DNA of 64,000 nt from Xanthobacteraceae bacterium. GTDB taxonomy: Bacteria; Pseudomonadota; Alphaproteobacteria; Rhizobiales; Xanthobacteraceae. The first letter of the stretch is position 1; each line of letters begins with the position of its first letter. This document shows, in pieces, positions 48,106 to 55,402 of the stretch. The DNA is taken from the NCBI GenBank assembly GCA_030037895.1, contig JASHPW010000064.1:1-64000 (forward strand), written 5' to 3'. The position numbers were made by a program, and so were the translations under genes. Below the pieces are notes generated by a model, which had not been told where the DNA came from, did not search any database, and worked only from the letters and a program-made list of their open reading frames with translations.

Positions 48106-48852
48106 CTACGCCGTGGCGCCGGCATCAACGGTGAGGACGGTGCCGGAAATGTTGCGCGCCTTATCGCTGATGAGGTACTCGACCGCGTTTGCGACGTCCT
48201 CCACCTCGGCGAGGCGGCGCAGCGCGCTCCTGCGCATGATCCGCTGGCGCTGCTCGTCGGCGAGGCGATGCGTCATCTCGGTCGCCAAGAAGCCGGGCGC
48301 CACGGCGTTGACGGTGATGCCGAGCCGCCCCACCTCGCGCGCCAGCGAGCGGGTGAAGCCGAGCATCGACGCCTTGGTCGCCGCATAGGCCGAAAGGCCG
48401 CTGTAGCCGGTGAAGCCGATGATCGAGGCGACGTTGACAATGCGGCCGAAGCCGTCCGCCATCATCCCGCGCACCACGTATTTGGTGAGCACGATCGGCG
48501 ACAGCGTGTTCAGGCGCACCAGCTCCTCGATCTTCGAATTGTGCATCGTCGCCAGCACGCCGTCGTGGCCGAGCGCGGCATTGTTGACGAGGCCGGACAA
48601 CGGGCCGAATTCCTTGCGCAGCCTGCGCACCAAGTCGGGAATCTCCTCGATCCGGCCGAGGTCGAACGGCACGAAGTGGAGCGCGCCCTGCCCTGCGCGC
48701 TCGGCTTGCGCGCTCGCCGCCGCCACCTCCTTGTTCTTCTGCCGCGCCACGGCGATCACCCGGTATCCCGCGGCGGCGAGTTTTTGCCCGATGGCCAGGC
48801 CGAGACCGCGGCTGCCACCGGTCACGAGCACGCTGCGCATCGCTGCGGCCAT
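48106..48852 (-). CDS. SDR family oxidoreductase (FabG-like)
   Basis: VLVTGGSRGLGLAIGQKLA, LVNNAALGHDGVL, YSGLSAYAATKASMLGFTRSLAREVG, TVNAVAPGFLATEM. Confidence 0.93.
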   Translation of the reverse strand: MAAAMRSVLVTGGSRGLGLAIGQKLAAAGYRVIAVARQKNKEVAAASAQAERAGQGALHFVPFDLGRIEEIPDLVRRLRKEFGPLSGLVNNAALGHDGVLATMHNSKIEELVRLNTLSPIVLTKYVVRGMMADGFGRIVNVASIIGFTGYSGLSAYAATKASMLGFTRSLAREVGRLGITVNAVAPGFLATEMTHRLADEQRQRIMRRSALRRLAEVEDVANAVEYLISDKARNISGTVLTVDAGATA

Positions 48853-48855
48853 GGC

Positions 48856-50250
48856 TCACCCGTGCCGGCGCTCGAGCTTGCCGGTGGCCGCGACCGCGAG
48901 CGTCGGCACGAAGCTGATCGCCGCCGGCACTTTGTGGCGCGGCAGCGCCTCGCGGCAGAGCTTGAGGATGTCGTCCCTGACCTCGATCCGCCGCGCGGCC
49001 GCCGAGTCCCGTTCGAATTTCAGCACCACGTCGGCCACCACGACCGCGCCGGTGATCGGGTTCCGCCGCGGCCGCACCAGCGACATGCGCACCTGCGGAT
49101 GCCGGTTGATCACGGCCTCGATCTCCTCGGGATGAATCTTCAATCCGCCGACATTGATGATGCCGCCCCTGCGGCCGACGAAGTAAAAGCGTTCCCCGCG
49201 CCGCTCCACCATGTCGCCGGTGTCGACGAAGCCGTCGGCGGCGGCGAGCCTCTCTCCAGCGCCCAGATAGCGGGACGCCGTCCGCGGCGAGCGGATCGCG
49301 AGCGCGCCGTCAACGACCTTCAGCTCGACGCCGTCGCGGACGGCTCCGACATAGTCGGCGGGAAAACCGGCGCGACCGTCGTTGACGTCGAAGCCGACAC
49401 CGGCCTCGGTCGAGGCATAGGCGTGCCCGATATTGGCCTGCGGGAAGACCGCGCGCAGGCTGTCGAGGATCGCCTGGTCCGCGATCTCGCCCGAGAGCCG
49501 CACATAGCGCGGCGCGATCGTGCGGATCGCCGGACTCATCAGCGCGCGGCGCCAGTGCGACGGCGTGCCGGACAGGTGCGTCACGCCGTGCCGCGCCAGC
49601 CGCGCCAGATGCTCGGCGACCGGCTCGCCCGCGCTCGAGAGAACGAGCGAGGCGCCGCCGCAGACGGCGCGGAGAAAAATCTGCAGCCCGCCGTAACGGC
49701 GGATGTCGTAGAACGTCCCCCACACCGCCGCGCCGTCGGCCGGGCTTTTGGCCGCCACGGCCGCCGTGAGGCCGGCAAGATCGTGCACGACCATCTTCGG
49801 CACGCCGGTCGTGCCCGAGGTCAGCAGCACCCATTCGCTGCGGCGGCGCACCGGCGGGGCTTGCTCCGTCGGCACGATCGACGGCGCGCACATGACGCGA
49901 TCGAGATGATCGAATGCCGCGGCATGTGTGCCGCCATCGATCACGACGGCATCGACCTCGGCCCGCCCGATCACGGCGGCAAGATGATCGGCCGCGATGT
50001 CGGGCGGCAGGACGGTGATGCGCCGCGCGCGGCCGTCAAGCTCGATCAGCGTGAGCGCGGTCGTCAATTGGTCCACGGTCGCGACCAGGACCGAACGGCC
50101 GCATAAATCCGCGAGCCGGCCGGCGAGGCTCGTTCCGCGACCTAGGTCGGTGAAGCGCACGGATCGGGCGCGGTCGCGGAAAAATCGCGGCGCCGGCGCG
50201 TTGGCGACATGGGCGCGCAGCGGCGGCGCCTCAACGCGCGCCATTTTCAT
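48856..50250 (-). CDS. AMP-forming acyl/aryl ligase (class I adenylating enzyme)
   Basis: WVLLTSGTTGVPKMVVH, GHAYASTEAGVGF, DTGDMVERRGERFYFVGRRGGIINVGGLKIHPEEIEAVI, A10-type Lys ATGKLERR. Confidence 0.92.
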   Translation of the reverse strand: MKMARVEAPPLRAHVANAPAPRFFRDRARSVRFTDLGRGTSLAGRLADLCGRSVLVATVDQLTTALTLIELDGRARRITVLPPDIAADHLAAVIGRAEVDAVVIDGGTHAAAFDHLDRVMCAPSIVPTEQAPPVRRRSEWVLLTSGTTGVPKMVVHDLAGLTAAVAAKSPADGAAVWGTFYDIRRYGGLQIFLRAVCGGASLVLSSAGEPVAEHLARLARHGVTHLSGTPSHWRRALMSPAIRTIAPRYVRLSGEIADQAILDSLRAVFPQANIGHAYASTEAGVGFDVNDGRAGFPADYVGAVRDGVELKVVDGALAIRSPRTASRYLGAGERLAAADGFVDTGDMVERRGERFYFVGRRGGIINVGGLKIHPEEIEAVINRHPQVRMSLVRPRRNPITGAVVVADVVLKFERDSAAARRIEVRDDILKLCREALPRHKVPAAISFVPTLAVAATGKLERRHG

Positions 50251-50476
50251 AGACCTGCACGAAGTCGCCGAGCGTCACCGGAAAGAAGGCGTCCTCGGCG
50301 GCGGTGAACGGATCGATGCCGAGGGCGTCTTCCAGCCGCGCGACCAGCACGGCAAAGCCGAGCGAATCGAGGCCGCAATCCACGAGCGCGAGATCGTCGT
50401 TGAGCGGCGCCAGGATCTTGCCATGCTCCCGCGCCACCTGCTGCATCTCGCGCATTATGGTTAATTTTACCGACAT
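50231..50476 (-). CDS. Acyl carrier protein
   Basis: 81 aa, 4'-phosphopantetheine site DCGLDSLGFAVLVARLEDALGIDPF; overlaps ligase start by 20 nt. Confidence 0.92.
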   Translation of the reverse strand: MSVKLTIMREMQQVAREHGKILAPLNDDLALVDCGLDSLGFAVLVARLEDALGIDPFTAAEDAFFPVTLGDFVQVYENGAR

Positions 50477-50551
50477 TGCCGGCGCCTACGCTTTGTTCAC
50501 TCTGGCCCGGTATATTCGCGCAACACTTACGATCAAGTTCACGACACGGTC

Positions 50552-53801: not shown

Positions 53802-53834
53802 GGTTACCAATAGAAAACACTTCGCATGGTAATC
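53802..53834. promoter_or_regulatory. Inverted repeat in divergent ACAD/carrier-protein promoter region
   Basis: GGTTACCA ... TGGTAATC, 7 of 8 positions complementary. Confidence 0.35.
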
Positions 53835-53914
53835 ACGTTACAGGCGGTTAACGGATGACCGCTACTCAATGGACCATGGCTTGCAAGGCGCCGACAGGCG
53901 CGTAGATCGGGAAA

Positions 53915-54205
53915 GTGTTCGCCGTGCTTGATCGTACCAAAGCCGACTCCGCGGAACGCGTCGCTCTCCTCGTGCATCGGCTTCTGGCCAGGCGCGGCGT
54001 GGTGCAGTCCATCGGGCACGATGATGATCTCGCCGCCAGTGGCCTGTCCTCGCTCGACGTCGTCAATCTCATGCTCGGCGTCGAGGCCGAGTTCGAAATC
54101 AAAATCCCCGACCGGGAGATGACGCCGCACAACTTCCGTTCGATCGCGCGCGTCGACGCGCTGGTGCGCGCGTTGCTCGGCGAGCATCCGGCGGCCGGCG
54201 GCTGA
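53915..54205 (+). CDS. Aminoacyl/acyl carrier protein
   Basis: 96 aa from GTG; DDLAASGLSSLDVVNLMLGVEAEFEIKIPDREMTPHNFRSIARVDALV with phosphopantetheine Ser. Confidence 0.9.
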   Translation: MFAVLDRTKADSAERVALLVHRLLARRGVVQSIGHDDDLAASGLSSLDVVNLMLGVEAEFEIKIPDREMTPHNFRSIARVDALVRALLGEHPAAGG

Positions 54206-54322
54206 CTTGGTATTCCGGAATAGGCCTTGGCTTGGGCATCGCTCCAGTGTGATGATGGCGGCGATCGCGGCTGAAACGCCGACCCGCCGGACTTCAACCC
54301 GCGAACGCCAGGGCAAGCACAC

Positions 54323-55402
54323 ATGGAATTCGGCATTCTCTTCACCTCGCATCCCAACACCGAGGCGGAGCCTTACCCGCACCGCGACGTGCACGCGCGG
54401 GTGACGCGGCAAATCCTGCGCGCCGACGAACTCGGCTACGATTATGCCTGGGTCGCCGAACATCATTTCAGCAACGAATACGGCATCATGCCCGACGTCT
54501 TCGTCTATGCCGCCTATCTCGCGGCGCTGACCAAACGCATCAAGATCGGAACCGCGGTGGTCACGCTGCCGCTCGCCAATCCGCTGCGGGTCGCCGAGAA
54601 CACCGCCTTCGTCGACATTCTCAGCAACGGCCGCTTCGCGCTCGGTCTCGGCTCGGGCTACCGCAAGTACGAATTCGACGGCTTCGGCGCCGATTTCGAC
54701 GGGCGGCGCGATATCCAGGAGGAGGCGTTGCCGCTCTTGATGGAGCTTTTTCACAACAAGCGCGTCGACCACGACGGCAACCACTTCAGTTACAGGATCG
54801 ACGATCCCTACGAGCTGTTCCCGCATCCGCTGCAGCAGCCGCATCCGCCGATCTTTCTCGCCGGTTCGACCGCGCGCTCGATCTCCGTCGCCGCGCGCAT
54901 GGGTTCCGGCCTGTTCCTGTCGAGCTGGACGCCGTTTGCCGAGTTGGCGCGGCAGACCGCGCTCTATCGGTCGCTGTTGGCGGAGACGCCCGAGAGCCTG
55001 CGCGCCAATCCGGCGCGCGGTCACATCGACGTGGCGCGCTGGGTCTATGTCGCGGAAACCGACGCCACGGCGAGGCGCGAGAGCGAGGCCGGCATCATGC
55101 GCAGCCTCGAGCACTTCGCCAGCGGCCACACCTCGGGCTATCTCGGCACCGTCTCGCAAGACGTCGGCGCCGCGCCGCGCGACTATGACGCGCTCACCCG
55201 CGACATCATCCTGCACGGGTCGCCCGCGACCGTGATCGCGAAGATCGAGGAATTGCGCGACAGGACCGGAGCGGCCTCGATCATGCTGCATTTCCCGCCG
55301 TGGTACGGCGCGGACAAGGCGCTCGCTTCGCTCGAACTCTTCGCCGCCGCGGTGATCCCGCATTTCCGGCAAAAAAAGCCGCGCGCGCAAAAGCGCGCGT
55401 GA
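54323..55402 (+). CDS. LLM-class (luciferase-like) flavin-dependent monooxygenase
   Basis: EFGILFTSHPNTEAEP, YDYAWVAEHHFSNEYGIMPDVFVYAAYLAALTKRIKIGTAVVTLPLANPLRVAENTAFVDILSNGRFALGLGSGY. Confidence 0.92.
   Translation: MEFGILFTSHPNTEAEPYPHRDVHARVTRQILRADELGYDYAWVAEHHFSNEYGIMPDVFVYAAYLAALTKRIKIGTAVVTLPLANPLRVAENTAFVDILSNGRFALGLGSGYRKYEFDGFGADFDGRRDIQEEALPLLMELFHNKRVDHDGNHFSYRIDDPYELFPHPLQQPHPPIFLAGSTARSISVAARMGSGLFLSSWTPFAELARQTALYRSLLAETPESLRANPARGHIDVARWVYVAETDATARRESEAGIMRSLEHFASGHTSGYLGTVSQDVGAAPRDYDALTRDIILHGSPATVIAKIEELRDRTGAASIMLHFPPWYGADKALASLELFAAAVIPHFRQKKPRAQKRA

What the first reader, a model, noticed from the sequence alone, without database searches (positions are those of the whole stretch)
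48106..55402. Compact carrier-protein pathway around an amino acid:[carrier protein] ligase: candidate undescribed non-NRPS amino acid modification cluster
Within 7.3 kb there are two carrier proteins (50231-50476 and 53915-54205), a class II aaRS-like amino acid:CP ligase, an AMP-forming ligase coupled to one carrier protein, an SDR, a GNAT-like acyltransferase, an acyl-CoA-dehydrogenase-like flavoprotein and a luciferase-like flavin monooxygenase. Established: stand-alone SerRS homologs in Bradyrhizobium load Gly/Ala onto dedicated carrier proteins, and as far as I know their end product is unresolved. Inference: one carrier protein would receive an acyl/aryl group (ligase + SDR) and the other an amino acid (aaRS-like + ACAD-like). 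The GNAT could then join them and the LLM enzyme oxidise the product, giving an N-acyl or dehydro-amino acid metabolite. Mixed gene orientation means co-regulation is not proven.
Basis: partly seen in the sequence, partly recalled or inferred. Interest (0 to 1): 0.92.

Follow-up and report, generated by a model that had tools for sequence, protein, structure and literature searches.

The report
Orphan amino-acid carrier-protein pathway, gene set defined
A block of about ten genes that keeps company across many soil bacteria, including relatives of soybean symbionts, appears to load an amino acid and a second acid onto small carrier proteins to build a small molecule nobody has identified; it gives a full gene list for testing what a structurally solved but functionally orphan enzyme is for.

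Summary
In detail: all eight genes are present and intact. Neighbourhood analysis refutes the 'only a trio is conserved' alternative. Two modules recur: A = aa:CP ligase/ACAD-like flavoprotein/CP2, and B = CP1/AMP ligase/SDR plus a GNAT-like protein. They sit together in at least seven different arrangements across several alphaproteobacterial families. In most Bradyrhizobium-like genomes they are split over distant loci, yet still co-occur. In 299 genomes the clade-I ligase, the module-B AMP ligase and the divergent MetA-like gene have almost the same distribution (50-51 of about 53 shared). A second ligase clade, with DUF1839, shows no such link. The luciferase-like gene is not part: it occurs in only a few close relatives. 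The ACAD-like protein lacks both classical catalytic glutamates, which weakens the 'dehydro-amino acid' idea. The crystallised Gly:CP ligase Bll0957 is 92-96% identical to Bradyrhizobium-like members of this clade, so it belongs to this set. Product and chemistry remain inferred. Verdict: a conserved, apparently undescribed carrier-protein pathway around a known enzyme family.

The parts
42713..43753 (-). Divergent MetA/HTS-like homoserine O-acyltransferase; core member by co-occurrence
   Evidence: PF04204 214 bits; NF003776 411 bits, cut-off 358; catalytic Cys and the H-x-E of GHPEY conserved; the only HTS gene in its genome; HTS genes in the family split into canonical (over 410 bits) and divergent (208-275 bits), the divergent ones in the same genomes as the clade-I ligase (51 shared, 1 and 2 exceptions)
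43775..45079 (-). MetY-like PLP enzyme (O-acylhomoserine gamma-substitution family)
   Evidence: PF01053 417 bits, TIGR01326 604 bits; lies next to the ligase or inside the cluster in other genera and families
45309..47129 (+). FATP/long-chain-type acyl-CoA synthetase
   Evidence: NF006134 758 bits; forms an operon with CP1-AMP ligase-SDR at a separate locus in Bradyrhizobium-like genomes
48106..48852 (-). SDR (FabG-like), last gene of the CP1-AMP ligase-SDR operon
   Evidence: PF00106/PF13561; travels with CP1 and AMP ligase
48856..50250 (-). AMP-forming ligase predicted to charge CP1
   Evidence: PF00501 + PF13193; overlaps CP1 by 20 bp; orthologs in 53 of 299 genomes, 50 shared with the clade-I aa:CP ligase
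50231..50476 (-). Carrier protein 1 (CP1), phosphopantetheine Ser in G[LF]DSL
   Evidence: PF00550; motif conserved in all orthologs listed
50552..51433 (+). GNAT-like acyltransferase candidate, divergent from CP1
   Evidence: No Pfam/NCBIfam hit; predicted N-terminal GNAT fold, C-terminal half not predicted; orthologs in 57 of 299 genomes including every genome with the AMP ligase
51470..52393 (-). Amino acid:[carrier protein] ligase, clade I
   Evidence: NF005479 460 bits, cut-off 357; Zn ligands C126/E171/C274 in 64 of 64 relatives
52433..53686 (-). ACAD-fold flavoprotein without the two classical catalytic Glu residues
   Evidence: PF02771/PF00441; invariant I393 and A263 at those positions; fold similar to ACADs, DszC and KijD3 nitrososynthase
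53915..54205 (+). Carrier protein 2 (CP2), predicted acceptor of the aa:CP ligase
   Evidence: PF00550, NF005480/PRK07081 61 bits, below the cut-off 72; serine of the G[LIM][STD]S motif conserved; next to ACAD in nearly all loci
54323..55402 (+). Luciferase-like monooxygenase: NOT a conserved part
   Evidence: Only in 3 other same-genus loci (L056, L057, L112), absent from all other genera and most same-genus loci

Best explanation
The locus encodes one biosynthetic pathway with two parallel carrier-protein lines and a homoserine-derived branch. Line 2: the class II aaRS-like ligase activates a small amino acid (Gly by homology to Bll0957) and loads it on CP2, where the ACAD-fold flavoprotein oxidises it, more likely by N-oxygenation or other Glu-independent chemistry than by alpha,beta-desaturation. 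Line 1: the AMP ligase charges CP1 with an acid that the SDR reduces or oxidises on the carrier; FATP supplies an acyl-CoA. Third branch: the MetA-like enzyme O-acylates homoserine (or a relative) and the MetY-like enzyme replaces the gamma-acyloxy group, giving a homoserine-derived, perhaps non-protein, amino acid. The GNAT-like protein then makes the amide bond between two of these building blocks, releasing a small N-acylated or dipeptide-like metabolite. Shown here: gene identities, the conserved set, co-occurrence, conserved active-site and phosphopantetheine residues. Inferred: substrates, order of steps, role of the GNAT, product. The confidence given is for 'one pathway with this gene set', not for the product, which is much less certain (about 0.2).
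For: Conserved proximity in different orders and orientations: window genus; g28 (L074, L087, L091); L071/L092; L010 Bauldia; L151 in another family; L013; L016/L017. L151 carries ThDP enzyme-GNAT-CP1-AMP-SDR-LIG-ACAD-CP2-hydrolase-FATP-MetY-HTS in 13 kb. Co-occurrence without linkage: in most g24 (Bradyrhizobium-like) genomes the set lies at three distant loci, GNAT-LIG-ACAD-CP2, FATP-CP1-AMP-SDR and MetY-HTS. In 299 family genomes clade-I ligase vs AMP ligase: 50 both, 2 and 3 exceptions, 244 neither; vs divergent HTS: 51, 1, 2, 245. Across the class, clade-I genomes G370 and G442 have the AMP ligase, six clade-II genomes and nine ligase-free genomes do not. Three same-genus genomes (G049, G116, G176) lack ligase, AMP ligase, GNAT and HTS together. 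Bll0957, crystallised as a Gly:CP ligase, is 92-96% identical to the g24 ligases of this clade. Bll0957 and Bll0958 rise together about 3-fold in a phaR mutant (PMC10888616). A PPTase-family gene is in the genome. Relatives of CP-ligase-SDR sit in acylation or glycan loci.
Against: The genomes are related, so the Fisher p-values overstate independence. Module B exists without the clade-I ligase in four genomes (G098, G115, G232, G246), so it may do something without line 2. No shared operator-like word links the three divergent promoters. MetA and MetY homologs could simply make homocysteine. The GNAT model is poor (pLDDT 52) and its role is a guess. ThDP enzyme, aminotransferase and hydrolase found in relatives were not seen near the window's set. 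No substrate has been measured for any window protein.
Confidence: 0.6

Rival explanations
1. Two or three independent pathways that happen to be neighbours: module A makes an oxidised aminoacyl-CP for one purpose, module B makes a hydroxyacyl-CP for another (such as sugar or protein acylation), and MetA-MetY makes homocysteine.
For: Module B occurs without the clade-I ligase (G098, G115, G232, G246). More distant CP-ligase-SDR cassettes sit in flagellin-glycan or polysaccharide loci without an aa:CP ligase. MetY and MetA are annotated as methionine enzymes.
Against: Near-identical distribution of clade-I ligase, AMP ligase, GNAT and divergent HTS even when unlinked; re-clustering in different arrangements; the own genome holds four further strong PF01053 genes, so a housekeeping need for this MetY is not evident.
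Confidence: 0.25
2. The system decorates a cell-surface glycan or glycoprotein: CP2-bound amino acid and CP1-bound acyl group are transferred to an amino sugar, as the authors of PMC2922099 proposed for the DUF1839 (Atu2574) branch.
For: PMC2922099 note in proof; DUF1839 and glycoside hydrolase next to clade-II ligases; module-B relatives next to pseI, glycosyltransferases and flagellin in Azospirillum.
Against: No glycosyltransferase, sugar enzyme or DUF1839 was found to recur in clade-I neighbourhoods; a recurrent MetA/MetY pair fits a soluble amino acid better.
Confidence: 0.12
3. One reading: ACAD desaturates the aminoacyl-CP2 and the LLM oxidises the joined product to an N-acyl dehydro-amino acid.
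For: Genes are present; ACAD homologs act on carrier-bound amino acids in other systems (own knowledge: prolyl-PCP dehydrogenases).
Against: LLM not conserved; the two classical Glu positions are invariant Ile and Ala; glycine has no beta carbon.
Confidence: 0.08

Closest known systems
Amino acid:[carrier protein] ligases of Mocibob et al. 2010/2013 (Bll0957, PDB 3mey, 4h2w)
   Same: Same family, clade I; Zn ligands, adjacent ACAD and CP; Bll0957 is 92-96% identical to g24 members whose genomes carry the rest of the set
   Different: Published work (as cited in PMC9437257) gives loading activity, no pathway; here module B, GNAT, MetA-like, MetY-like and FATP are added
Clade-II aa:CP ligase loci with DUF1839 (Atu2574 type)
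   Same: Ligase-ACAD-CP trio
   Different: DUF1839, GH2-like and alpha/beta hydrolase instead of module B, GNAT and MetA/MetY; no co-occurrence with the AMP ligase
CP-AMP ligase-SDR cassettes in Azospirillum, Haematobacter and Qingshengfaniella plasmids
   Same: Same three-gene order ACP-ligase-SDR, ligase 41-43% identical over 69-70% of its length
   Different: Beside glycosyltransferases, acyltransferases or flagellin, no aa:CP ligase in the stretch shown
Cispentacin pathway (AmcB carrier, AmcH ligase; PMC10698177)
   Same: Stand-alone carrier protein charged by a free adenylating ligase, then aminotransferase and hydrolase
   Different: Uses ketosynthase AmcF-AmcG; no aa:CP ligase there, no ketosynthase here

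Membership tests
Amino acid:[carrier protein] ligase | Score over the curated family cut-off | tested here: met
   460 vs 357 bits
Amino acid:[carrier protein] ligase | Catalytic core only, no tRNA-binding domain; Zn ligands Cys/Glu/Cys | tested here: met
   307 aa aligning nearly end to end with 4h2w; C126, E171, C274 in 64/64
Amino acid:[carrier protein] ligase | Dedicated neighbouring CP with phosphopantetheine Ser | tested here: met
   CP2 next to ACAD/ligase in nearly all loci, motif kept
Amino acid:[carrier protein] ligase | Activates Gly/Ala and loads the CP, not tRNA | not testable with these tools
   needs assay
Clade-II DUF1839 (Atu2574) system | DUF1839 gene beside the ligase | tested here: not met
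   none among the window genes scanned or in clade-I loci; present in clade II
NRPS cluster | Condensation domain / multidomain modules | tested here: not met
   no such domain in the proteins scanned
Canonical acyl-CoA dehydrogenase | Catalytic Glu at the MCAD or IVD position | tested here: not met
   aligned to MmgC: invariant I393 at the YEGT Glu; A263 at the IVD position, whose location is from own knowledge
ACAD-fold flavin N-/S-monooxygenase (KijD3, DnmZ, DszC) | Fold and loss of the Glu base | tested here: inconclusive
   similar Foldseek scores to dehydrogenases and monooxygenases
LuxI-type acyl-homoserine lactone synthase | Autoinducer synthase family match | tested here: not met
   GNAT-like protein has no Pfam/NCBIfam hit
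MetA homoserine O-acyltransferase | Cys nucleophile and H-x-E | tested here: met
   alignment to 2h2w; much of the rest is divergent, so the substrate is open

The most novel reading that the evidence does not exclude
A so far undescribed class of carrier-protein pathway that combines a glycyl-type carrier line (class II aaRS-like ligase, Glu-less ACAD), an acyl carrier line and a homoserine gamma-substitution branch, makes a new amino-acid-derived metabolite in bradyrhizobia and related soil alphaproteobacteria, and is the biological role of the orphan clade-I aa:CP ligases.
Probability: 0.5. Interest if true: 0.77.

Novelty: new variant of a known kind. Interest (0 to 1): 0.62.

Why it matters
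The aa:CP ligases were solved and assayed more than a decade ago, but a 2022 review still lists the purpose of the loaded amino acid as unknown (PMC9437257). This work gives a concrete list of about ten genes, shows that the crystallised Bradyrhizobium enzyme belongs to the same set, and finds that in bradyrhizobia the genes are scattered over three loci, which may be why the pathway was not recognised. Each part can be deleted in a tractable laboratory strain, so the question becomes testable.

Tried and rejected
Trio-only conservation: rejected. LLM, MBL-fold protein and DUF1445 as members: rejected, lineage-specific. LuxI-type signal synthase: no family match. Shared operator in the divergent promoters: no common word of 9 or more bases. 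Profile search of the ACAD alignment against PDB at 1e-20: no hit. Structure of the GNAT-like protein: only the N-terminal half gave usable confidence; Foldseek matches are generic GNATs plus N-myristoyltransferases, a hint only. Literature: no paper found linking these genes to a product; the library lacks most subscription journals. Rhizobitoxine (own knowledge of its genes) and cispentacin as matches: different gene sets. Adenylation substrate code for the AMP ligase: alignments too weak to use.
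Full report
WHAT IS THERE. The window lies on a 106-kb contig of a roughly 90% complete assembly (G000, 3.27 Mb); its nearest named relatives are Xanthobacteraceae MAGs. 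CP1 and the AMP ligase overlap by 20 bp and the SDR follows 3 bp later, so they look like a coupled operon; ACAD and aa:CP ligase are 39 bp apart on the same strand. The set is arranged as three divergent pairs (MetY|FATP, CP1|GNAT, ACAD|CP2), which explains the 'mixed orientation'. No word of 9 or more bases is shared by those three intergenic regions, so co-regulation is not shown for the window. For Bradyrhizobium, Bll0957 (ligase) and Bll0958 (ACAD) both rise about 3-fold in a phaR mutant under microaerobic growth (PMC10888616).

CONSERVED NEIGHBOURHOOD. tblastn of the window proteins on 61 loci shows two units. Module A is ligase/ACAD/CP2. Module B is CP1/AMP ligase/SDR with the GNAT-like gene. 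Module B lies beside module A in inverted or shuffled order in genus g28 (L074, L087, L091), in part of g24 (L071, L088, L089, L092), in Bauldia litoralis (L010), in L016/L017, in a MAG labelled Gammaproteobacteria (L013; a binning error is possible) and in a genome of another family (L151). ORF clustering added recurrent members: MetA/HTS-like, MetY-like and FATP (all present just upstream in the window), and in relatives a class IV aminotransferase, a ThDP enzyme (PRK08199), an HSL-type hydrolase and a cupin. In most g24 genomes the genes are split over three distant loci and are still present.

CO-OCCURRENCE. The ligase family was searched in 299 genomes of the family and separates into two clades in a tree of 64 sequences (clade II support 98/79, so not at the strict threshold; sub-assignment of g26 genomes checked by identity, G108 and G191 by genus only). 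Clade I (window, Bll0957) occurs in 52 genomes. It shares 50 with the AMP ligase orthologs and 51 with the divergent HTS; several of the exceptions are incomplete assemblies. Canonical MetA (over 410 bits) occurs in 19 genomes and is a different group. Clade II shows no association. Class-wide, clade-I genomes in two further families (G370, G442) have the AMP ligase, while six clade-II and nine ligase-free genomes do not. The p-values ignore kinship; the argument rests on the unlinked copies, the several genera and the joint absence in G049, G116 and G176.

LINK TO THE SOLVED ENZYME. The PDB ligase Bll0957 is 92-96% identical to g24 ligases (L075-L086) and 66% to the window. So the enzyme assayed in 2010-2013 belongs to this set. 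[quoted passage not shown] PMC2922099 (2010, note in proof) discussed the clade-II neighbourhood and proposed ligation of an amino acid to a sugar amine.

ACTIVE SITES. Zn ligands Cys/Glu/Cys are invariant in 64 ligases (their assignment is from own knowledge of the structures). The carrier serines are conserved. The ACAD has Ile where MmgC has the YEGT glutamate and Ala where isovaleryl-CoA dehydrogenase has its base (the IVD position is own knowledge). Fold scores are similar for dehydrogenases and for the monooxygenases DszC, TdsC, KijD3 and DnmZ. Hence classical desaturation is unlikely but oxygenation is not proven. The MetA-like protein keeps Cys and H-x-E. The GNAT-like protein is supported only for its N-terminal half.

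WHAT DOES NOT BELONG. The LLM occurs in three other same-genus loci (L056, L057, L112) and in no other genus examined; DUF1445 in one relative's locus; the MBL slot is taken by an SbmA/BacA-like ABC transporter or a TRAP transporter in other genus members.

HOW IT MOST LIKELY WORKS. See Best explanation. Shown: gene set, co-occurrence, motifs. Inferred: glycine (by homology), ACAD chemistry, CP1 substrate, the homoserine branch, amide formation by the GNAT, product. Relatives of CP-ligase-SDR in flagellin-glycan and polysaccharide loci suggest that module B supplies a hydroxyacyl-type group, by analogy only.

LIMITS. No substrate or product evidence; many loci are MAG contigs; antiSMASH and cluster databases were not available; the paper library is open-access only.

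Noticed in passing
L112:10650-11900 (genome G098, same genus): Ligase-ACAD-CP2 are missing between GNAT and LLM; instead there is a 1.1-kb stretch with a 244-aa ORF, flanked by a second copy of the last ~15 codons of the GNAT gene. A natural loss of module A with the rest of the set kept, or an assembly artefact.
   Followed up: partly
G126 (g28, one-contig genome): Keeps the divergent HTS but has no clade-I ligase and no AMP ligase: a possible remnant of the pathway.
   Followed up: no
L001:14599-16779 and other same-genus loci: SbmA/BacA-like ABC transporter directly downstream of SDR in the module-B operon; absent from the window, where an MBL-fold gene sits in that slot.
   Followed up: partly
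window 38956-40107: Fusion of an AhpC/TSA-type domain with a 2OG-Fe(II) oxygenase domain.
   Followed up: no
window 55409-56239: D-glutamate cyclase/DUF1445-type hydro-lyase (NF003969 407 bits) beside a branched-chain-type ABC transporter operon starting about 56400; not part of the conserved set.
   Followed up: no
L017:7426-9321, L016: A second AMP-ligase-like protein (631 aa) follows the ligase; it may replace FATP in that lineage.
   Followed up: no
L072, L155-L158: Far ligase relatives (about 125-160 bits to NF005479) in other families without the partner genes; possibly a third kind of SerRS-like enzyme.
   Followed up: no
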